DNA of 64,000 nucleotides from assembly GCF_019649055.1 (NCBI RefSeq), contig NW_026570221.1:1054001-1118000 (forward strand), given 5' to 3'. Under the pieces are notes generated by a model, which was not told the DNA's origin, did not search any database, and saw only the letters and a program-made list of their open reading frames with translations. A program made the translations under genes and the position numbers. Below are positions 34,795 to 64,000 of this stretch, in pieces (position 1 is the stretch's first letter; each line of letters opens with the position of its first letter). The stretch comes from Paramacrobiotus metropolitanus. Lineage: Eukaryota; Tardigrada; Eutardigrada; Parachela; Macrobiotidae.

Positions 34795-37700
34795 ATGCGC
34801 TGTGTCAGTGTTAAATTCTCTACATCCGTTGTTATTGCAATACTTTTACTAATTGTCCTCATATCGGAACCTGGATCGTGCGGAAATCTTGTGCGATTAG
34901 GTAAGCCATATAAATACAGTATATGAATGTAGAAGTGACCACTAGCGCCGTATAGTAAGTGCTTAAAGAATACGTGATGAAGCATCATAATACATGCATT
35001 CTATCATAATTACAATTGCCGGCTGCGTTAATTACATACTCGTACAATCAAAATTGTTTAATTAGCTAAACATAATTTTGTGATTTTGCTACAGTCGTCG
35101 TTTCCAGAAATCTTTTAAATTACACTGAGCATTTTATGATTTCGATTAATAAAGAAATAAATGAACAAAACGTAATTAAAAGATAATCAGCACAAATATC
35201 TGTATATTGTACGTCATGCAGCGAAAACTACCCATCGTTTTTTTGTAGTTTCGAAATGCACCACAAAAGCCGGTATTGGCCGGTGTACTTCCCTTCCATC
35301 CAGCTGCATGGACATGGGCGGCATCGTGGAGGATGAACTGCAGCTGACCAATGGCGAGCGTCCCCGTGATTACTGCCCGGACGATGAAGTCTGCTGTGTA
35401 CTGCCGCCCATTCCCTTCACGGAAACCTGTCAGATCTGCGGTAAGAAAGGCAACGATCGGACAGCCCGTAAATCGAATCTGGAACGCAATCTCGACGAGA
35501 ATAATGGTCAGCAGCGACACCGGCTGCGGGCGTTACGGGATGTGTGGCAGGCTGAACAGGATGCTGCGCGTGGACGCCTCATGCAGCCGGATCACACATA
35601 TTATGGGCAAATGGGTCGAATTATGAATGGGGACAATGCCAGGAAAAGCGAATGGTGTTGGCAGGTACACGCGTGATACAGCAATTAGTTCATTATAATC
35701 AAGTGCCACCAGTATTCGTAACACTTTAGCGAAATATTTTTGTTTCACTGCATATTGCGTACCGATTGGTTGTTTTAAAAATTGAGAAAATACGCAGTTG
35801 TATAAGGCAAGCAGTTCTGTGATTATGCTATAGTTATCACCATTGCCTGAAATTTTGTAGCTTTTCCTTTTAAAAATGTAAAAACACTACAAATATATTT
35901 GTAATATTCGGGCAATAGCCACCTTTTTTGATAAAAAATGCAGGCGCGGTTACAACACTACACAGTTAGAAATTTCAAACAAATTAGGTAAACCAAAACA
36001 CCTAGTTAGCTTCCGTTGCGTGTTACGATACAGTATTTATTACAATATTACAATTTACATACATGTTGTATCACTTATACGCATGTACAGTACGTGTTGT
36101 ATAGATATACCTATCTATACTGTACGTGTTGCACACAATGACTGCGCCATCGGCCCTGAATTTTTTCGAACGTGTTTTGTGGGCGTGAATTTGTAATTAC
36201 TATTTTACGTCGTTTGATCTTGGTGCTATATTTTTTGTTTTTCCTTCAAGATTTGATAGCCAAGGATTAAGTATATATTTTGGGAAGCTAATGCCTCTAA
36301 TACAGATACAGATACATATAATTCAGTTTTCAAAAAACAAAGTGAATAAGGTAAAATTTAAGCGTAATTACGGTACGCCGCAAGGGTTGGTGTGCTGCAA
36401 TTTTGATCTGCTTGCGCATTAAATTTTGGATCTACCAAATTGCTTGTTCTTCCCGCCCATACTTTCACTTTTCGGTTTTTACAATGGTCAACAACCAGTT
36501 GATGCATCATTTTCTGCTCGACACTCAACGAGCGGATGTCAGTTGTGTCAGAAAGATTAATTAAGAATTAGAACTTGGATGTAATCTGTCGAAGGGAAGA
36601 TGAGCTACACTACACCGTACAGTAATTGTTCACGATGCGTTCCGGCTCATTTTTGGTGTGTAATGTGAAAAAACGTGTCAGTCCGTTCACTTTACTTCTG
36701 TCAGGCAGCCGCAATTGCATCCGATTGATGGGTGGCGTCGTTCCTAATGATTGACCAATTTCTGTTAAAATTAATCATGCTTTGACGAATAAATTTGCTG
36801 CCAAGTAAAGGCAAAAAATTTGTTTCGATTACTGGACTTTACATTCAATTGACCTTACCGTAAGAAATGGGAATTAAGCTAACTGCTAGTAAAGCTAGTT
36901 TTTTACTATAATTTAATCTACTTTATGTATATTGTAAATGTTGCATTCAAGGTTTTTAATTATTCTTTAAGGATGTTACATGCATCTATCATGTGTAATT
37001 TTAACACAACGTTATAATTGTACAGGTTGCACTGCTGAATATTGATGGGTCTGTTCTGGGAAGTGGATCGCTTATTGATGGACGTTACATTGTAACCGCA
37101 GCTCATAAAATTGCCGGGTAAGTTTCATGCGTAGCAGTCAGCACCAAATTTGAACTTCGTCTATTTTATTTTCTTTGTGAATTCCGTTAAACATGGATAC
37201 TTCTATACGTACATACAAACCGTATGTTACTTGTGGTTTACCGCTACAGAAAATTGTTTATTCCAGGAGCCCTTAAATTGTTGTACCGTAGCGGTTTTAT
37301 CGCAGCAAAACCACTGTTAATAAGGAGTCAAAATACGAGTATTAAGTTGCAGCTAGATTTCAGAATGTTACTTAGGAAAATGACTTTTAAGAAAAATCTG
37401 CCCAATATTACATTTTAATAATAATAATATGTGGGATAATACCTAACCCGTCAGTTTATACTGTTTACACTCCGTGACAACTGACAAGGTGAAATTAACT
37501 TTTTCAGGAGGAATATCAGTGAGCTGATTGTTCTTATCGGCCAGTATGACTTCGCCAATCCCATCAGTCCTGATGATAACGGCACGACAACCTGGTATGC
37601 GAAACCACTGGAAATCATCGTCCATGAACTATTCAATCCTCAGGTGAGTGATCCAAAAAAAACGTTATCAACCGCCATGAACACAATGCTGTGATTTTTA

Positions 37701-38982
37701 AACTTTCTATGATGTTCTGTTTATTAATTTTAGTTGTGCACAGTACGTTTCGCATGACGGTATATTACGTGAGAGCTGTCTGTTTGGTGACACGTATACT
37801 GCGAGCCAAAGTACATAAAAATGAAACTATCATAAACTACGAAGTAATTAAATTATAAGCGCGACAGAACTTTACTCTTGAATTATTTCCTTTTGTTTAG
37901 GACAACTTACTAATATTAAAACTGAGCGAAATGGCAACCTGATTTATAGTTCGTACGGTTTTATACTTATTGTAAACATAGCTGAGAAAGTAATGTTTCT
38001 ATATTTGGAAACAGAAATTTTCTTTCGTACGGTTCGGTTCCGTAATAGATTCAATTTGTGCAGCAGCGTAGTGCAGTGGCCGACAGAATTCTCTTATGGA
38101 AATCTGGAAATCGCTTTGTGCGGTTTTGTAGACTATTAAAATGGCATTTGCTGACGGAACGTAACTTATCTTTACCATGAAAGGAGCTATTGCTTTTTTT
38201 AAATTAAACAGCACATACACTGTAGCATGTTTTTAAGTGCAAAAATTATTAGAATAAAAATGTTGCGCAATAGAAAGCAAAATGCAGTTGTCAAAGATAT
38301 TCATGTATCTGTACAGACACTGGACAACAACATTGCTCTCATCCGTATCCCCATGGTCAACTGCAACACCGCCAACGTCTGTCCCGTATGCCTGAACTCC
38401 ATCACCGACAGCGTCGACTACCTCTCCACCTTCACCAACTGCTACATCACCGGCTGGGGCGCCACCGTCTCCAAACGTACCTCCACCATCCTCCAGGAGG
38501 CCCGCGTCCGCATCCTGCCCACCTCCGAGTGCCTGCAGCGCTTCGCCACTCTCGGCCTAGCGGATCTGCAATTACCGGCATCGGCATTCTGCGCCGAAGG
38601 CACCGGCAGTAACGGCTTGACCACGGGCCCCACCAACCGGGTGATGAGTACGTGCGGCGGGGATGGCGGCGGCCCACTGGTCTGTGAGTCGGGCGACGGG
38701 CTGTGGCGTCTGGTGGGGCTGATTGCGCTGGGCCTAGATGAGTGCAAACAGGGCAAGGTGTCGGCACCCACCGTGTTTATCAACGTGGCCATGTTTGTGG
38801 ATTGGGTACATGCGGTGCGGCGGCGCATGAGTAAGGGAGCGGATGTGGAGGAATTATGGGGTGGAAATAGTATTAATGTCAAGAATAAACCGGGCGACCG
38901 GGAGCCAAAATCCGTTGACCGGAGGAAGGCGGATGGGGAATATAAAAATGCTCAAAGTGTCTTTGGTCGGGCGCTGTTTTAA
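34795..38982 (+). CDS. Clip-domain serine protease homologue, catalytically dead
   Basis: Secreted protein of 471 aa. Exons: 34795-34900, 35249-35664, 37026-37117, 37508-37643, 38317-38982. A signal peptide (VVIAILLLIVLISEPGSC) is followed by a six-Cys clip-like domain (SKCTTKAGIGRC, SC, DYCPDDEVCCV) and a charged linker. The chymotrypsin-fold domain then starts near MNGDNARKSEWCWQVALLN. The catalytic His (VTAAHKIAG) and Asp (LDNNIALIRI) are kept, but GDSGGP reads GDGGGP (CGGDGGGPLVC), so the nucleophile Ser is Gly. The S1-pocket Asp189 position is Ser. By analogy with arthropod clip-domain homologues it would act as a cofactor or regulator in an immune or developmental protease cascade, which is inference. 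The usual activation site R-IVGG is replaced by RIMNG. The last exon is markedly GC-rich. A long tail (RRRMSKGADVEELW onward) follows the domain. Confidence 0.9.
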
Positions 38983-50152: not shown

Positions 50153-51035
50153 ATGAAGAAATGGTTAAGGGTGAATTTGCCTCGGGCCATTATGAATAAG
50201 GTACGAAGCAAACGACCATCTACTGGACGGTCCAGATCGTCGTCCACAAACAGTGAGGAATCGACACACAGTTCCGGTAAAATACATTTTCGGCTTTTGT
50301 CGCCACTATATTTTTCATCATATAAGCTGCTCGTTTAATAACTGATTTGGATATTGATGCTACTTAATGGTTACCGTATACTGATTTAACTGCATATTTG
50401 GCAGGTCATCCGACCTGCAAAAATGTCGAAGAATTGGTTTCACTGCACTCAACGCCGCTTGATCGCATGGAACTGCTACAAACACTCGCAATGCCTATTT
50501 TGGAAAATTTGCGAAATTTCCATGAGCAAGGGCAAACTGGATTTGAATTTCGACCAGATCGGATGATGCTCAGTGAAGCCGGAACTGTCGTATTGCAAGA
50601 GCGTCCGGAGAACGAAATGGAGGAAAAAGTTTCGAAACGACACTCAGACCAGGCATTCCGAAGCCTGCTTTACAGTTCGCCGGAAATGCTGCGTGGGACC
50701 GATGCAGACAACCCGGAAGTAGCTGCTTCATCTGATATCTGGAGTTTTGCTTGTCTATGTTTGTACATTCTGACCGGTAGTGACCCGGTTGTTTATCGTT
50801 TGCGCAAAGGCGAAGAAGTCTCGCTAAACCAGGATAAAAACCCTTTCGTGGCGGTAACCATGCACGTTGGCAACGGAGACAGCCGACCGGAGTACCGGCG
50901 ATTCTGTCAAGATTATGCCACTTTGGAGGAGTTATTTGCACAGTGTTTCCGCTATTTCCCGAGGATCGACCATCGGCCGCAGCGCTTTTAGAAAGTGCCT
51001 TTTTCCGAAACGAGTCACTAAATTGTCGAATGTAA
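50153..51035 (+). CDS. C-lobe-only protein kinase homologue (pseudokinase), copy 1
   Basis: Exons 50153-50276 and from 50405. A basic, Ser-rich N-terminus (MKKWLRVNLPRAIM, RSRSSSTNSEES) leads directly into a kinase C-lobe with no glycine loop, VAIK Lys or alpha-C region. LDRMELLQTLAMPILENL corresponds to helices D/E. GFEFRPDRMMLSEAGTVVLQ sits where HRDxKPxN and DFG belong, with the catalytic Asp and DFG both absent. YSSPEMLRG is the APE region and SDIWSFACLCLYILTG helix F; HVGNGDSRPEYRRF follows. The frame as given stops at 50991 after YFPRIDHRPQRF. A one-base shift at about 50959-50963 would instead continue PEDRPSAAALLESAFF to a stop at 51035, matching copy 2 (PEKRPTAAALLNSDF). Catalysis is not expected; scaffolding or regulation is inference. 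Confidence 0.65.
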
Positions 51036-52053
51036 TATCTGTTGACTATCAATGCCGTTGCAGATGTAAATGTAAAAGATGCTACCGTTTTATTTGCCTC
51101 AGCTGGATCTGGCGTTTAATTAAAGTATTTTTGATTAAGTTTATGATCTGTGGAGGTTTTGGTTCAATCAAGCATGCAATAAACCAAATCCTTACGTTAT
51201 TACGATGACCAGTTGAGGTGTATGGTGATTAAAATCATGCTGGTGATTTTATTTTGCATTTCGCAGGTAGTTACTAGAGTAGGTATTCCCGTCGACGATA
51301 AGTTAAAATTTTAACCGCATGTCTATTGGGCTAGACACTAAATAAAATGATATAAGTACGTAGAAGGATACTTAACAGAAAATGGAATCACGAGGAATAA
51401 CAACTGCCAAGTTGCCAACCACAACTGCGTGCCTACTGCACGCAGGCACGCAGCACACAAGTACTAAGCGTTGGTAGGTATCAGGAAGGACAATAATATA
51501 ATTTATTGAGACAACGTACAATTCATGTACAACATAAATATAATAATACGACTATATCAGCATGCAGGCAAATGATGTAATCTCCTACAGTTTACACTGT
51601 ACTGGGTCCAAGTATCAAGTTATATAGTACTTTCAAGTTATAGTATCAAGTTATATAGTGTATGACTACTTTCAAGGGTCATTGGCATTTTTGTGGGTTT
51701 ATTACAGAGGCCATAGGCAAAGCGTGGTGGGTACGCGTATTTAAATTGGGTCGATCAATTATCCCATCTATGAAAATGTATCAGCGTGCAGTTCATAAAA
51801 TTCAAATATGAACTGCTGATAGTTTAGAGCTGTTATCTCACTGCCGGCAGAGTTCAATGCTTCATAAAAACAAAGAAATGTTATAAAAATGATTGGCAAA
51901 ACAACGATTCGGTTTCATCCAATGTTTTGCAGAGTACTTTCAATTTTTCCTAACACTATTGTAACAGTGCGATTTAGCGAAAGAGTTGGACGTAAAAGGA
52001 TTACAGACTACAGTTGTCATGCCGAAGTGGTACGCTCATTTTCTTTTGTGTAG
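51036..52053. other. Spacer between the pseudokinase copies
   Basis: No further gene is visible. A short direct repetition (caagttatatagtactttcaagttatag) lies near 51615-51660. Confidence 0.5.
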
Positions 52054-52928
52054 GGTCAGCAACAAGAAATCCAGCAGGAGGCCAGCAGGCGCAGCTCTTG
52101 ACGAAACTGACGGAGCAGAAAGAATTGGTAAGCAAACGTATTAATTTTATCAATGCATCCATAAATGTAAAACCAGGCAAAGTAAACGCGGTTGAAAACG
52201 CGGTTTTTTTGAACACTTTATAATCTACGCATTCAAATTGTTACAGACGGAGATAGCATGCGAAATACCGAACAGCTGGTATCCCAGCAGCGCGGCTGTT
52301 CCGGTCGCCTGGAATTACTGTGCAGGCTGCTAAAACCGGTTTTGGAAGGGCTGGATCTCTTCACCTTCAGGGCAAAGCCGGTTTTGAATTCCGGCCGGAT
52401 TTGCTGCTGATTAGCGAAGCCGGCACTGTCAGCTTCCAAGAACGCGTCGAGCGTGAGATCGATGAAAGATACTTGAAGAAGCATCCGGAGCAGGCGATAC
52501 GGAGCCTGCTGTACAGTGCCCCGGAGGTACTACGCGGTGTGGAGAGAACAAACCTAGAAACAGCCAGGTGCTCCGATATCTGGGGTCTTGGTTGCTGGTG
52601 CGTGTATGTACTAAGCGGAAATGATCCGATGTTATACCGAAGACGGAAAGAAGAAGATATTTTGATAAATCAGGACAAGAACGCTTTTGTCGCCATTACG
52701 CTGCACGTGGGCAATGGGGACTCGCGACCGGAATACCGGCGATTTTGCCAGAATAATTCCGTTTTATTGGAGTTCTTCAGTCAGTGTTTCCAGTATGATC
52801 CGGAGAAACGACCGACTGCTGCTGCACTGCTAAACAGTGACTTTGTGTGTAATCCCTTGACCGGTGATCCGGCGTTCGATGGCGATTACGTGGATGGAGA
52901 ATCTTTTTGGAGAAACGATTCCGTTTAA
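52054..52928 (+). CDS. C-lobe-only protein kinase homologue (pseudokinase), copy 2, frameshifted
   Basis: Exons about 52054-52127 (VSNKKSSRRPAGAALDE) and from 52246 (MRNTEQLVSQQRGCSG). The start codon is not certain because the first exon shown lacks a Met. RLELLCRLLKPVLEGLDLF aligns with copy 1 (RMELLQTLAMPILENLRNF). A one-base shift at about 52357-52363 then moves the frame to GKAGFEFRPDLLLISEAG, and this frame stays open to 52928. YSAPEVLRG, SDIWGLGCWCVYVLSG, HVGNGDSRPEYRRF and YDPEKRPTAAALL follow the kinase C-lobe. As in copy 1, HRD and DFG are missing. The C-terminus (DYVDGESFWRNDSV) is acidic. It is either a pseudogene or an intact gene with one missing base in the assembly. Confidence 0.6.
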
Positions 52929-54018: not shown

Positions 54019-55249
54019 TTACTCACTCTGATCAAAATAGGGATGCTGCAGCAGTTGGGCAGCAGTTGGACGATGTTCGGTGTCGAATTCCAAACATGAC
54101 TCAATCAGTTCTAACAGCAGCCGATTAGCCACGACCTTTCGATCCAGTGGTGGCAGTTTAGGCTTAGCGAGACGTCGACCGACGTGGAACATAACCGGAG
54201 TAATGCCTTTGTGCACAACAAGGCCCTCACCACCGTCTCGCCATTCACAGATAACCGGTGCCTTTCCGGTAACCAGCACGATGCCCACACAACCAACACT
54301 CCATACATCAATCTTTCCGGAAATTTCTTCCTTGATTGTCGTCTATGTCGCCCAGTACGCGTAGCAGCTCAGGCGCGGCGTAACTAGGCGTGTAGGCATT
54401 GGTGACCTTTTCCGATTTCAACTGTCGTCCTACGGCGACACCCTCAAAATCGATGATAACGATGCGACCTTCTGGCATATGGAACACCAGGTTTTGCGGT
54501 TTAATATCGCAGTGGATCAACTGCAGATCGTGTTGATGTAAATAGTCCAAACCTTGAAGAACATCTCGAAGAATACGGCCTATTTTGCGGTGTTCGAAAT
54601 TCTGTCTAAAGCGTGATTGTATGGCCCATTCGAGTAGATTGCCGCCTGCAACAATCTCTTATCGTACAAGCATTATCGGTCAAACTGTATAAACAAAATG
54701 AACGTACTTACCTGTACAATGCCCTAGCGCCAAAAGGTAATGCACTTTACCGCCAATACAGCCGGCAACGTGCAAGCCATAGTAGCGAATAACGTTATCT
54801 TGGCGGATGTTTTTGATCAGCATTTCTGCCTCCAGTATGACCGATAGGAATTCTTTTGGACTCGGCGATGAGTTCCTTAATAACAAAGCGTCTGTCTCCA
54901 TGCTCAACAGAGAAAACATTCGTGCTGTAAATATGAAGCGGAGCCGGACGGTGGGTTAGGAAGTCAGGTGGACGAATCTCCACAAGGATCTTTTGGACAT
55001 CTGGGCTCTGGTTCGTCATCACGGGTACATGGTGTAATTCAGCTTGGTGTGGCCCCTTTTAACAGCACTGGCGAGTACGTAATATGTGTTGTAGTTGTTG
55101 TCATCCAGTTGTAGTGAAATGAGGTAGTATTTATGCAAACAGTCCTTATATAGACTTGTGATGACACTGTAATAGAACACGAATAGAAACACTGTCTCCA
55201 AGTGTTTGTGCCATGATAAAAGTCCTTTCAAAAAGCTGAGATCCATCAA
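54019..55249 (-). CDS. Protein kinase-like gene with both lobes, frame interrupted
   Basis: Convergent with the two pseudokinases. The 5' part (from about 55249, or MTNQSPDVQKILVEIRPPDF at 55019) leads to the N-lobe: FVIKEL (ATP-anchoring Lys) and ILEAEMLIKNI (alpha-C Glu), then VIRYYGLHVAG. After a gtaagt donor near 54709 the next exon gives GGNLLEWAIQ, GLDYLHQHDLQLIHCDIKPQ (HRD as HCD, catalytic Asp kept), IVIIDFEGVAVG (DFG as DFE), YAAPELL, IDVWSVGCVGIVLVTGKAP, FHVGRR and HRPTAAQLLQHPYF. One-base shifts are needed at an A-run near 54857-54862 and at CAAGGAAG near 54330-54335, and perhaps near 55015. The C-lobe loops (VMFHVG) match those of the pseudokinases (VTMHVG), so the three form a local family. 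MAP3K-like in feel but not assignable. Confidence 0.6.
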
Positions 55250-56631: not shown

Positions 56632-59397
56632 TTACTTTTTAATTACCTCGATAGGAGAGAGTGGAACGTTTGGATGCGCCACAATCGGCATATTAACAAC
56701 GCCTGCGTACGTTTTCCCATCGTCACCAGTGCCAACGATGCCCATGACAATCGGATGTATATCCACCTCGTCCATAAGGATCTGTATAGCCGTAATACTG
56801 GCGATTTGCTTTTGTCCGGCGAGTAAACCTTGCGTGGTTTGTAGAGTGCTTTGGAAATTGGGGTCCATTAATTTGATTTCTTTTTTGGAGCCTGCAAAGA
56901 GTGTAGAGAAATAAGTACGGAAAAAGTTGTGCTGATGCATCTGAAATAAACAGAGAAATTTATGACATTGAGATTTTTCTAAATGACGACTTACTGTCCA
57001 CAACATAGTGATACGTTTTAAAATCACCAACGTTCAACATTGAGGATATACTGGTAAGCCCGGCCGTTCCTGCAATCGAATTCGGGCCGGAAGGCGTTGG
57101 ACAACTGGCGGCATGCGTGTCAAACAAACCATTGGTTGGGCAATGCAGAAGGCTGGCTCCGTTCTGCGGCGGAGGTAAAATGTATGAGTAGAACGAAAAT
57201 AGTGCTATATTATTATGAAGTTAATTTAGTTGCGAATCATGCCAGTTATAAGGCACAAAAATGAAAACAGCCCAGGTACTTATAATCTTACATTGTTAAT
57301 CAAGTTTAAATCAAATCCATCCGTGGTGTTTGTCTGATTTCTGTTCAGAAAAACTGGATTCACCGGCGGGACGAGGGTTGGTCCGCCGGGCGGCGGGAAG
57401 TACTCGGTCAGTAACTCAGGGTCACCAATGGGATTCAGGATATTGGTGGTCCAGTTAACAGTGTATTCCATAATGCAATTGCCTATAAAAAGAATTCACA
57501 GCTTCGTTACGTTTAGAATGCAAGCGATTCTTTCGAAACCGGCATAAGTACAAATAGTAACCACTTTCTTTACCGGAATACAACAAGTACGTCTGGTACG
57601 GTGAGTACGGTCCCAAAAGGAAGGACGACTCGTCGATGTTTCCCTGGCAAAAAGATTGCAGTGTGCACTGCGGAGCGGGGGTGGTGGTGGTAACCGTTGT
57701 AGTCGTTGTCGGCGCGGCCGTTGAAGTGGTGGTCGACGTGGTCGCCGTTGTCGTAGAAGTCGACGGCGTGGATGTTGATTGTGCTGTTGTCGTCACGGCC
57801 GGTGTACTGGAAACACTGGGCTTCGACGTCGAACCGCTAACAGTCGCTCGTGTGGTGCTGGTGACAATCGCCGCCGTTGTGGTCGTTGGGCGAGCTGTCG
57901 TTGTCGTTGGGCGAGTCGTGGTCGTAGGTGTCGTTGAATTCAGACGCGTTGTGGACGTTGACGGGCGGGCGGTAGACAGTGTCGTAGTCACGCGGGTTGT
58001 GGTTTTTGGAGTGTTTGCCCATGAGGTGTTCCACCGCTCAGCTTCGCAATCCCCTAATCATTAATTTAAAACATGTACCGCATTTCAGAATACATATATG
58101 AGATATAAGGGAGGTTTTGGGAAAGACAGTTTGTTCTTGATGTGCTTACTGCTTACAGTAGCGGCAGATACGAGGATTACAGCCGTACATATGACTGATC
58201 AGCTGACAGTCGGTTTGGCTCAGTCGTGGAATATCGGGCACGGCTTGCGGACCCCGACGGAAGGAGAAAGCAATGCTGCCCGGTCGGGCGAAGGCGGTCG
58301 GACGGTTGTGCGTGATACTGCAGGTGTCGTACGGTAGACCCATCCAAAAGTTTTCCAAGTACGCTTGTAAGAAATCGTATCGTTTGTATGCTTCCTAACA
58401 ATAGGTACAATGTGTAATAATTATACTATTATGTTATCTATGTATTTCAAAGTATTGCGGTATATATAAAGTTAAGTCTATCTCTAGAATTTTATTTTAA
58501 TAATAATGAATGATAAAGTCGTTTAATGGTTGCAGATATTATGTTTACCGGAAAGTCGATATTTTCCGGATGCAAACGGATATACTCGTTGCGATCCCAA
58601 CGCTGATGTTCATTCAAGCGACCCAGAGTGATGGCCCAGCCTTTCATCAATCCGACCAATGTCTCATTTAGACAACTATCCGGTCCACGCGGTACGACAA
58701 ACAACTGGTCGCGACCTTTTTGCGCGAAGCTATGACGGAACCCGGGAAAGGCTTTGCAGTACTGTTCCGGTCGGCTAAAACATCACATAATTTAAATCCT
58801 CAAACGCACCTTGGCCTGAACTGATTACTTTACTTATTGTGCAGGAACGGAGTGACCTTTATCTTGGGCCGGCGATCGCGACCATCGGTCTCTCTAAGCC
58901 GGATGCATCCCAGTAGATCGCGTTCAATAAAAGCAGCCGATTGTCGGATCCAGTACTGTTCCTTTGGACCTTTTGAATTTAAGTAATATATTCGGTAAAT
59001 TAAGTTCATGAACTACGAGTACATAGTCCAATGACAAATTCAGATTAGTGGAAAGTGCAGAGTAATTAATACTAGTGAATAAAGTCGCTCTTTTATATAG
59101 CTGGCCAGTATTAAACGATTTATACGTACTGTAGTATGGGTCAATGTAAAATAAAATTTCATTAGGATCCGGCCAGCGCCAGTAAAGGTCGATAGTAAAG
59201 AATAATCCGCGTTGAACATGATGGGCGTTACGCTTGTTCACTTCTTCGGATGGCGCTTCGCCGTCCATGGAAATAACTGTAAAAAAAACCTGCCGTGATA
59301 AAGATCGTCAAGTAATACTGATATTTCGTTTACCATCGGCTAACGCTTCCTGCAAGCTCAGGAAGAAGCACAAGGTTGTCAACACTAATTTCCACAT
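56632..59397 (-). CDS. Astacin-family (M12A) homologue without zinc site, with Thr-rich stalk
   Basis: Secreted protein of 636 aa. Nine exons: 59397-59334, 59276-59130, 58969-58834, 58774-58549, 58394-58157, 58053-57574, 57482-57292, 57163-56995, 56891-56632; all phases close. A signal peptide (MWKLVLTTLCFFLSLQEALA) is followed by an astacin domain: RWPDPNEILFYID, RQSAAFIERDLLGCIRL, CKAFPGFRHSF, NEHQRWDRNEYIRLHPENID, YDFLQAYLENFWMGLPYD, RPTAFARPGSI, LSQTDCQLISHMYGC. The zinc motif HExxHxxGxxH reads KGWAITLGRLN: all three His and the catalytic Glu are gone. The Met-turn SVMHY reads SITHN. It cannot be a normal metalloprotease. A Thr/Ser/Pro-rich mucin-like stretch (about residues 285-390) follows, then a unique C-terminal region (CTLQSFCQGNIDESSF, ILNPIGDPELLTEYFPPPGG, ASITAIQILMDEVDIHP) with no recognised domain. 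Confidence 0.9.
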
Positions 59398-60420: not shown

Positions 60421-62460
60421 ATGGACAAAAACACACTTTATAGCTCTTGTCGGATTCTGAGATTGGCATTATGTCCTGACGCCTACGGACTTTATCAAAC
60501 TGGCTCTTCGTGGAATTACACAGCGAAAAATGTTTTTAAGATTAGTGTGACGGACGATCCACCGTGGAGTTTCGAGAGTCCGCCTGGTTCAGGATGCTTT
60601 TGCGGGATTTCCATAACATTACTTGCTTTGATTGGTCAAAAACTGAATCTGAGGTATCTAAGTAATCAGTAACAGTACGTCTTAATTGCAACTGTTTCTT
60701 CCAGTTAGCTGGTTACCGTCACCAGTCCGATTTGCGTGAATTTCAGCCCAAGCTGCAATTTTGAGTTCATATTGAAAAAATAGTAATGCGATTGTGCACT
60801 TCAGATTTGTATGTATTGTGTACAGTTCATTTCAAAATTTTGACTCAATAGGAGAAACAAGGAATGTGGCTCGTACACAGCCTTACAGAGATGAGAATGT
60901 TTCGGCTATGAACATTCACATACGAGTTCATCCACAGCAAGTATAGTGCGCATTCAACCACGCTCACTATGTATAAATTTTTCCTCAAACTTAGTAAGTT
61001 TGAGGAAAAGTTTACCAATTGGGCTGTATATCTGACAGATCTGTTTATTCTGTTGTGATTTGCAAACGCTGTCTATTCTGTCGCAGGTATTCTATGCATA
61101 TCGAAGACGTGATCACCTCCAGATTTACAACTCCGGACGGCGTCGTATACACCGGCGCACCAGCTGAACTGCTGCTCGGATATGTTAACATGAGCATCCG
61201 AGCATACTCCGTAACCGTCACACGCCGCAACCATTTCGCCATGGTCCCCACTTATTTACTACGCAGTTACAAAGTTGCCGTTCACGAGCGCCGCCTGGTT
61301 GATTCGGCGATGGTCGCGGACTCCATAATCTATGCGTTTTTCTACGCCCCAATGCTGGTCGTATGGACTGCCATCGTCAGTGCAGGACTGTGCGTTGTTT
61401 GTGTGCTAATATTCGTGCGCTACACATTGGACAAAAACAGCATCCGCAAGGCTAATCGTTTGCACCCGGCGAAGCCAGCAAGAACAGCGGATTCTTTCGC
61501 TAGCGTATTTATGCGAAACAGTTACAATGTTTTTGCCAGCCTTATGAGTCAAGGTAAAGGTCATCGTACTCAGCTACGGAATTGTAGGAAAAGACATTTA
61601 AATGACTGCTTTTAGATAACATCGAAAGACCTCTGAGGTTCCTTGGAGCCCAGGTAGTAGTGGTGATATGGTTGATCTGCACATATTACGCTGCTACGCT
61701 GGTGACGACAAATGTCACGTCGAGCTTGTCAACATCGTATTTGACACCTCCGTTTCATACCATGCCGGGATTTGTGCAGTCCGAATTTTATCCGCTGCTG
61801 ACAACGGGAAGTTCAGAAGCGGAATTCATGGTAGGGAGCTGAATGCTCACCTCCGGCTACCAATAATATCGTTTTATAAAACGGCTGGGTTGCAGAATAG
61901 TCCCGCCCTGAAACCGCTGCTCGAAAGAATGCGGAAGTCAGATTACGGACAACCATTTGAACGGCGTATGGAAACGGCTGCCGCTCTGTCTAGAACGGAG
62001 AAGCTAGCCGTTTTCAGCAATGACGAAAAACCCTTGTTTCAGAAGATGGGTTTCGTCGTGGCCGTCGAGTCGGCATACGATCGCTTTGTTTCTACGTTCC
62101 AGCTGCCACTTGGCTCTCCGATGGACACAAAGCTGACAAACGTGTAAGACTCTTAAAACTGCATGCTTAACAGCATACGTCAAAGTTAGGCAAGTTTTCA
62201 GAATTCAGCGGATGGCCAAAACAGGAACTGTGCAGCGCTTAGCTCGGCTGCACAAGGAGATTTTGTATTTTGCGCACGGCGTGCCGTTTGCTCCGGGTTC
62301 CCAACCTCATACGAAAGGGAACTCAGCAATGCAAATGGATTCCTTAATCTCGGTGTGCTACATAATGGCCGGGATGTTGTGTCTCGCCTTTGTCTTGTTT
62401 CTGCTAGAACTGAAGTACGAAGCTAAACAATCCCGCTACAAAAAATTGCAGCAACAATGA
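60421..62460 (+). CDS. Ionotropic-receptor-like ligand-gated channel, tandem copy 1
   Basis: Belongs to the ionotropic glutamate receptor superfamily. Five exons: 60421-60653, 61087-61553, 61616-61830, 61896-62143, 62202-62460; 473 aa, in frame. No amino-terminal (ATD) domain, as in arthropod chemosensory IRs. Ligand-binding half S1: VFKISVTDDPPWSFE, GCFCGISITLLALIG, VYTGAPAELLLGYVNMSIR, YSVTVTRRNHF (the T-x-x-R Arg is kept). M1 is YAPMLVVWTAIVSAGLCVV. A pore-loop region with SFASVFMRN precedes M3 (VVVVIWLICTYYAATLV), where the usual SYTANLAAFLT is TYYAATLVTTNV. S2 includes RTEKLAVFSNDEKPLFQKMG, and M4 is SLISVCYIMAGMLCLAFVLF, followed by a basic tail. The 65-nt intron 61831-61895 removes a stop. 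The N-terminus shows no clear signal peptide, so an upstream exon may be missing. Likely sensory or synaptic; ligand unknown. Confidence 0.85.
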
Positions 62461-63212
62461 CCTTTTGTTGCATTACCTGAACGGCTAAAGTTGTAAAGCC
62501 ATACTGGACAAAAAATTGACTAAAATTGTAAATTGTTATCGACTGCTGGTTTTGCGGAAGAAAGCTAAAATTCCTGGTATGTTTCCGGTCATTCAGCTGC
62601 AGCTAGCTTCATCTAACCAAAACGGTCTGCTAATGTACTCTTGTATTGCGGCCCCGGTCCATGTTATACCGTATACCGTAGGATAACGCTCCAGACAGCG
62701 TCATAATGCGAAAGCTTATTCACAACGTTACTGAGTAATGCTTAACCGTTAAGAAAGAGAGAGAAAGGAGTTCAGTCGGTGACTTAACGTCAGCGTATTA
62801 AAGGTCGGTTCAGTACGTATGTTAAGTAATGACAAACCGAGTCAACGACACAAGAATTTAATGTTGTTATTATCTTATACGTGCGGCGTTATTGCACAAT
62901 TAACGAAACGTTAATTTGAATCAAGGCTGCCTGAAAGCCTAAATCGTACCGTATTAACATCGTAACTCGTACATCTCAGTTTACGTACAAGGCACCTTCA
63001 CAATATTGTGCAGCTGTCAGATTTTCTGTTGCTGAAGTATCCATTTCATTGCGTGTGATCTACATGTTATTTCAACCGCGTGCGTACCTGTTAATTCAAC
63101 CACTTCCCAGTTCAGTATCCCAAACACTAGTAATGTTTAGGTTATTGCACGAGGGAAAAATACAGATTTTTTAGCTTACCCTTTTGGCTGTCCATATGCG
63201 CACACCAGATTA
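62461..63212. other. Spacer between the ionotropic receptor copies
   Basis: No gene seen. A short purine run (aagaaagagagagaaagg) lies near 62751-62769. It presumably carries the 3' UTR of copy 1 and the promoter of copy 2. Confidence 0.5.
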
Positions 63213-64000
63213 ATGGACCGGCAAGTAATCTATCACGGCTGCCACGTTTTACAGTTAACTGTCTGCAACAGCGCATTCTTTGCCGATGACATGCAAATGT
63301 CATCGCGAAGTGATTATACCTTTGCAAGGGTATTTAACATCAGCGTGAAAGATGAACCGCCATGGAGTTTTGAAAGTCCGCCTGGTTCCGGATGTTTTTG
63401 CGGGATTTCTATCAGTCTGTTGGCGTTAATTGGAGAAAAGCTGGGACTTCGGTAAGAAAGTTGTTATTAAAGCACTACTTCATTTGTTGATTCGTTTATT
63501 TTAGCAGTGTAATCGAGTGATTATAACGTGTGCTGATTGTAATTTGTAAGCATAACGAGGGAAAAGCATATTGTGAAAAACCATCAAGCGGTTTTTATCG
63601 TAATGTAAAAAATACTGACTATGGAATTGTGATTACGTTTAACTAGAATTTTCCTGCGCATCGAAAACGCCGATTCCCCAAACATCACCTTGGCCGACGG
63701 TCGAGAATATTACGGAGGTCTAGCAGAAATGCTACTGGGCTACGCGAATATGAGCATTCGTCCGTATTCAGTAACAACGGCACGCGAAAAGCATTTCAAG
63801 ATGGCGTCCACCTATTTCATTCGGAGCTACAGTATTGCCGTACATGAACGATGGCAGAAGGAATCGGCTACTGTAGCCAATTCAATCATGTACGCACTGT
63901 TCTATGTCCCGTTGGCTGACCTTTGGCCGTTATTGCTACTGGCCGCAGTTTGCCTGCTGGGTGTGCTGACCTTCGTTAACTACGTAACAACTCAACAGTA
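63213..64000 (+). CDS. Ionotropic-receptor-like ligand-gated channel, tandem copy 2 (cut by window end)
   Basis: Paralogue of the gene just upstream with the same first splice (63213-63451, then from 63647). It carries VFNISVKDEPPWSFESPPG, CFCGISISLLALIGEK, a longer S1 loop (RIENADSPNITLADGREY), LAEMLLGYANMSIRPYS and HERWQKESA. M1 (LFYVPLADLWPLLLLAAV) follows and the window ends just after it. In this copy the residue equivalent to the T-x-x-R Arg is kept (TTAREKHF). M3, S2 and M4 must lie beyond 64000. The near-identity of PPWSFESPPGSGCFCGIS between copies points to recent duplication or strong constraint on the ligand-pocket entrance. Confidence 0.85.

What the first reader, a model, noticed from the sequence alone, without database searches (positions are those of the whole stretch)
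56632..59397. Astacin homologue with the entire zinc site erased, fused to a mucin-like stalk
The sequence shows a nine-exon frame with a recognisable astacin fold, yet HExxHxxGxxH reads KGWAITLGRLN and the Met-turn SxMHY reads SITHN. Flanking astacin motifs (NEHQRWDRNEYIRLHPENID, LSQTDCQL-ISHMYGC) are well kept, so this is selective loss of catalysis rather than general decay. The fold may have been reused as a binding module on a Thr-rich stalk with a C-terminal region I cannot assign.
Basis: partly seen in the sequence, partly recalled or inferred. Interest (0 to 1): 0.72.

Follow-up and report, generated by a model that had tools for sequence, protein, structure and literature searches.

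The report
Secreted astacin relative without zinc site
An animal gene encodes a secreted relative of the protein-cutting enzyme astacin whose zinc-holding and cutting residues are all replaced, joined to a threonine-rich stalk and an unknown tail, so it probably binds proteins instead of cutting them.

Summary
On the minus strand, 59397-56632, nine exons with GT-AG borders give a 636-residue open frame with a hydrophobic leader. Residues 56-264 match the Pfam Astacin profile end to end (42 bits; cut-off 22.5). HExxHxxGxxH reads KGWAITLGRLN and SxMHY reads SITHN. Against four solved active astacins, 0 of 6 catalytic columns are kept, against 21 of 38 other invariant columns (22 of 39). The four disulfide cysteines and the family glutamate remain. 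No frame of the window holds HExxHxxGxxH.

A 111-residue stalk, 73% Thr/Ser/Pro, follows, then a 241-residue tail without Pfam or PDB match or CUB signal. No later stretch is as hydrophobic as the leader, so it looks soluble.

Best reading: a secreted pseudopeptidase reused as a binding module; binding is inferred. No orthologue, transcript or genome was available, so selection is untested. Pseudopeptidases are known among the related M12B ADAMs; my searches, partly read as capped lists, showed no described M12A case with the whole site lost. Interest is moderate.

The parts
59334..59397 (-). exon 1: start codon and hydrophobic leader (signal peptide)
   Evidence: GATG|gtaaac donor; the three most hydrophobic 19-residue stretches of the protein start at residues 4-6. 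SignalP not run.
59130..59276 (-). exon 2: short prosegment without FxGD motif and first strand of the astacin-like domain
58834..58969 (-). exon 3: N-terminal astacin subdomain, first disulfide Cys (residue 92)
   Evidence: acceptor ttcaaaag has a poor pyrimidine tract
58549..58774 (-). exon 4: Cys122, Cys150, erased zinc helix, kept EHQRWDRN
58612..58644 (-). former zinc motif HExxHxxGxxH, reads KGWAITLGRLN (residues 160-170)
58157..58394 (-). exon 5: C-terminal astacin subdomain, erased Met-turn, LSQTDCQLISHMYGC with Cys263
58305..58319 (-). former Met-turn SxMHY, reads SITHN (residues 217-221)
57574..58053 (-). exon 6: end of the head, Thr-rich stalk, start of the tail; no Met codon in frame
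57680..58012 (-). mucin-like stalk, residues 285-395: 111 residues, 55 Thr, 17 Ser, 9 Pro
57292..57482 (-). exon 7: tail, with NWT, NQT and NTT sequons
56995..57163 (-). exon 8: tail
   Evidence: codon score near zero (0.3 bits)
56632..56891 (-). exon 9: tail end and stop; no known family
   Evidence: lone-exon fold pLDDT 49

Best explanation
An intact animal gene for a secreted, zinc-free astacin-fold protein (a pseudopeptidase). Shown: leader, a complete but divergent astacin domain with its four disulfide cysteines and family glutamate, loss of all three zinc His, the catalytic Glu, the Met-turn Met and the zinc Tyr, then a Thr-rich stalk and an unassigned tail with cysteines and N-glycosylation sequons. 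Inferred: the domain folds without zinc, cannot cleave, and its old substrate cleft or surface holds a protein ligand, while the (probably O-glycosylated) stalk keeps this head apart from the tail, which binds something else. The likely role is an extracellular matrix, mucus or cuticle linker, or a decoy for substrates or inhibitors of active astacins.
For: Nine-exon open frame with canonical splice borders and AT-rich introns. Pfam Astacin over the whole profile (provisional model gave the same). PDB best match is the zebrafish hatching enzyme 3lqb, E 5e-4. 0 of 6 catalytic columns kept against 21 of 38 or 22 of 39 others. No HExxHxxGxxH in any of six frames of the window. Cys 216, 254, 268 and 273 add an even number of cysteines to the head, which would allow new disulfides. 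Leader present, no membrane-like stretch elsewhere. No in-frame Met between residues 260 and 435, so the stalk and tail cannot easily be a separate gene.
Against: No transcript, orthologue or dN/dS, so a recently silenced gene is not excluded. The PDB matches and the hhalign match cover mainly residues 133-277, and the best one 165-263; homology of the N-terminal half rests on Pfam. Ligand unknown. Scaffold conservation is only moderate: 17 of 38 non-catalytic invariant columns are changed too. The tail has five cysteines, an odd number. In exons 6, 8 and 9 an antisense frame had a higher codon score than the model frame.
Confidence: 0.66

Rival explanations
1. A young pseudogene: an astacin-family gene that lost function recently and still happens to be open.
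For: Three of the six catalytic changes are one base from an active codon (AAT for His, ACG for Met, AAC for Tyr; sequence); no evidence of expression or selection; 17 of 38 non-catalytic invariant columns also changed.
Against: No stop in 1911 nt, all 16 splice borders canonical, four disulfide Cys and the EHQRWDRN element kept, although identity to four solved astacins is only 22-28%. Neutral decay to this divergence should have broken the frame; but part of the divergence may predate the loss.
Confidence: 0.14
2. A regulator of active astacins: it sequesters their substrates, inhibitors or partners, as other pseudopeptidases do.
For: Pseudopeptidases of other families regulate active relatives or trap ligands (PMC11266112, passages). 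The retained head could still present a cleft.
Against: No active astacin was found in this window; no partner or expression data. Cannot be separated from the matrix role here.
Confidence: 0.15
3. Two genes wrongly joined: an astacin remnant and a separate Thr-rich secreted protein.
For: The tail has no known family and the head ends near an intron.
Against: Intron 5 is 103 nt with fitting phase and GT-AG borders. The second part has no in-frame Met until residue 435 and therefore no leader of its own in this frame.
Confidence: 0.05

Closest known systems
Astacin metallopeptidases (MEROPS M12A, Pfam PF01400), e.g. crayfish astacin 1AST, fish hatching enzymes, meprin beta
   Same: Whole-domain profile match; two conserved disulfide pairs by position; family-specific Glu in EXXRXDRD kept as EHQRWDRN; leader.
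   Different: All zinc ligands, catalytic Glu, Met-turn Met and zinc Tyr replaced; no FxGD prosegment motif; 2-residue insertion before the motif.
ADAM pseudopeptidases (M12B: ADAM2, 11, 18, 22, 23, 32)
   Same: Metzincin domain with zinc ligands and general base lost, in an extracellular multidomain protein (PMC11266112, passages incl. Table 2).
   Different: Different subfamily; according to that review they typically keep the Met-turn, which is lost here; no Pfam disintegrin match and no membrane-like stretch here.
Astacin - Thr/Pro linker - ShK proteins, e.g. salmon louse labial-gland astacins (PMC10828956, passages)
   Same: Astacin domain, then a linker rich in Thr, then Cys-bearing C-terminal part.
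   Different: Those keep HExxHxxGxxH, have a short linker and ShK domains; here the site is gone, the stalk is 111 residues, and the tail matches neither ShK nor CUB in Pfam nor CUB by hhalign.

Membership tests
Astacin family M12A / PF01400 (homology) | Astacin domain above the Pfam gathering score | tested here: met
   42.2 bits, cut-off 22.5, profile 2-189 of 189; 42.5 bits with provisional junctions
Astacin family M12A (active peptidase) | HEXXHXXGXXH | tested here: not met
   KGWAITLGRLN; no HExxHxxGxxH in six frames of the window. Motif definition from PMC9848320, passages
Astacin family M12A (active peptidase) | SIMHY Met-turn with zinc Tyr | tested here: not met
   SITHN
Astacin family M12A | EXXRXDRD with family-specific Glu after the third His | tested here: met
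   EHQRWDRN: Glu, Arg and DR kept, last Asp is Asn
Astacin family M12A | Cysteines of C42-C198 and C64-C84 (1AST numbering) | tested here: met
   C92, C263, C122, C150 by alignment; pairing itself not tested
Astacin family M12A | Prosegment with Asp-switch (FxGD, motif recalled) | tested here: not met
   no FxGD in residues 1-60
Astacin family M12A | Astacin three-dimensional fold | tested here: inconclusive
   Of the astacin domain only exon 4 alone was modelled, pLDDT 46
Pseudopeptidase (pseudoenzyme) | Intact gene, catalytic residues lost | tested here: met
Pseudopeptidase (pseudoenzyme) | Purifying selection and a non-catalytic function | not testable with these tools
   No genome held for the window; head: no close relative in GTDB or IMG/VR contigs; tail: none in IMG/VR
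CUB-bearing astacins (tolloid/BMP1 type) | CUB domain after the catalytic domain | tested here: not met
   No Pfam family at E up to 10; hhalign of the tail against five CUB sequences, probability 0.2%

The most novel reading that the evidence does not exclude
A lineage-specific secreted pseudo-astacin in which the zinc helix was rewritten in one step by a compensated local frameshift (the shifted frame still reads DERLGH near where HExxH would lie), and the zinc-free fold was then kept as a binding head on a mucin-like stalk with a new C-terminal domain. On re-checking, its best path matches only the LGH part, so I lowered this from 0.08.
Probability: 0.06. Interest if true: 0.6.

Novelty: new variant of a known kind. 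Interest (0 to 1): 0.36.

Why it matters
Inactive relatives are described in many metallopeptidase families, but in the passages I saw of a review of pseudometallopeptidases the M12 entries are ADAM-type proteins and astacins are named once, as fellow metzincins; an astacin review has no occurrence of 'inactive' (term count). A clean M12A case would show that the astacin fold can also be kept without zinc ligands, catalytic base or Met-turn, and would give a simple test of whether that fold is stable without its metal.

Tried and rejected
Alternative exon path restoring the zinc site: rejected for this window; no HExxHxxGxxH and no S.MH[YF] in any frame, and the seven short HExxH hits are not in this gene's frame. 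CUB-like tail (suggested by a Cys-Cys spacing of 27 and by SPYQTY): rejected, hhalign probability 0.2%, the same as two nonsense controls. Paralogue in the window: none; the only other tblastn hits had E 1.7 or more. Relatives in GTDB genomes and IMG/VR: none, with single-protein queries that reach close relatives only (for the head; 56 for the tail, viral contigs only). Compensated-frameshift origin of the lost motif: the shifted frame reads DERLGH and the frameshift-aware alignment takes a path through it, but that path matches only LGH and puts E and R in the His and Glu columns. With frameshift costs 12, 9 and 7, 311, 142 and 87 of 2400 dinucleotide shuffles and 417, 156 and 100 of 2400 other window segments scored as high, by a frameshift or without one; a weak lead only. 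Lone-exon structure models of exons 9 and 4: pLDDT 49 and 46, not used for fold search. The NCBIfam hit to LegP (25 bits, cut-off 300, residues 165-261) reflects the shared astacin C-terminal half and was not followed. Ten paper searches showed no described M12A pseudopeptidase, but three lists were capped (15 of 1954, 10 of 37, 25 of 89), I read passages of seven papers only, and the library misses most subscription papers; a nematode astacin survey of 2003 was seen only as a citation.

Full report
What was checked. The minus strand of 59397-56632 was read in three frames and assembled into nine exons. Every intron begins GT and ends AG; introns are 57-160 nt and AT-rich, the joined exons are 51% GC. 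The frame is 636 residues. Shuffling the bases left it open in 0 of 2000 trials. The model frame had the best sense codon score in 8 of 9 exons, by under 1 bit in exons 1 and 8; in exon 6, which is low complexity, another sense frame scored higher. In exons 6, 8 and 9 some antisense frame scored above the model frame, open only in exon 6. The codon test therefore supports the head exons 3-5 and exon 7 best. The weakest border is the acceptor of exon 3.

What the head is. Pfam finds Astacin over residues 56-264 and the whole profile, 42 bits against a cut-off of 22.5. Among solved structures the best match is the zebrafish hatching enzyme 3lqb at E 5e-4 over residues 165-263; the medaka enzyme 3vtg (0.029), meprin beta (0.31 and up) and crayfish astacin (0.39 and up) are weak. 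Aligned to four of these active enzymes (sequences taken), the three zinc His, the catalytic Glu, the Met-turn Met and the zinc Tyr read K, I, N, G, T, N: 0 of 6 kept. Of the other invariant columns 21 of 38 are kept in an anchored alignment and 22 of 39 in an unanchored one; Fisher p is 0.02 in both. Near the two motifs 11 of 16 non-catalytic invariant columns are kept. Kept residues include the four disulfide cysteines and the Glu, Arg and Asp-Arg of EXXRXDRD. Against a simple reading, 17 of 38 non-catalytic invariant columns have changed, and two residues are inserted between Cys150 and the motif. With four comparison proteins and linked columns, the p value is only a guide.

What follows the head. 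Residues 285-395 are a stalk of 111 residues with 55 Thr, 17 Ser and 9 Pro. The tail, residues 396-636, has no Pfam match at E up to 10, no PDB match at E up to 10, no NCBIfam match and no CUB signal by hhalign. The most hydrophobic 19-residue stretch after the leader averages 1.33 on the Kyte-Doolittle scale, below the leader's 1.63, so the protein is probably secreted and soluble. There is no in-frame Met between residues 260 and 435, which speaks against a separate downstream gene.

How it most likely works. With ligands, base and Met-turn gone, zinc-dependent cleavage by the astacin mechanism should not be possible; that follows from the described roles of these residues (PMC9848320, passages). 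That the fold persists and binds a partner is inference from the kept scaffold, and the partner is unknown. A Thr-rich linker between an astacin domain and a C-terminal module has been described (PMC10828956, passages), so the layout is ordinary apart from the lost site and the unknown tail. I put a binding or scaffolding role first; regulation of active astacins and a young pseudogene follow with about equal odds.

How it may have lost the site. The DNA under LMKGWAI reads DERLGH in a shifted frame, a possible relic of the zinc motif, and by eye the extra bases against the usual spacing add up to six. A frameshift-aware alignment takes a path through this frame, but matches only LGH. With a frameshift cost of 9, 142 of 2400 shuffles and 156 of 2400 window segments score as high (311 and 417 at cost 12, 87 and 100 at cost 7). 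I keep it as a lead, not a result.

What is known. In the passages I saw of a review of pseudometallopeptidases the M12 entries are ADAM-type proteins, and astacins are named once, as fellow metzincins. The astacin review has no occurrence of 'inactive' (term count). My ten searches brought up no described M12A pseudopeptidase; three of the lists were capped and the library lacks most subscription papers, so this is weak evidence of absence. The source species is not identified; introns, a Kv-type channel and a trypsin-like gene suggest an animal.

Limits. Selection, expression and binding are therefore untested.

Noticed in passing
37031-38982, + strand: A trypsin-like gene (Pfam Trypsin 73 bits) that by eye also looks inactive: TAAH is kept, but NNIALI stands where NDIALL is usual (Asp to Asn) and GDGGGP where GDSGGP is usual (Ser to Gly). 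A Cys-bearing stretch near 35260-35450 upstream looked clip-like by eye but gave no Pfam match at E 0.01. Serine protease homologues of this kind are common in arthropods (recalled).
   Followed up: partly
58660-58600, - strand: Shifted frame over the lost zinc motif reads DERLGH, a possible relic; 142 of 2400 shuffles score as high at frameshift cost 9.
   Followed up: yes
60500-64000, + strand: Two neighbouring stretches share PPWSFESPPGSGCFCGISI and look like tandem ionotropic-receptor-like genes (by eye; no Pfam hit for the two ORFs tried).
   Followed up: no
50368-52928 (+) and 54019-55060 (-): Three kinase-like stretches in a row by Pfam Pkinase (the one at 50368 is below the cut-off).
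   Followed up: no
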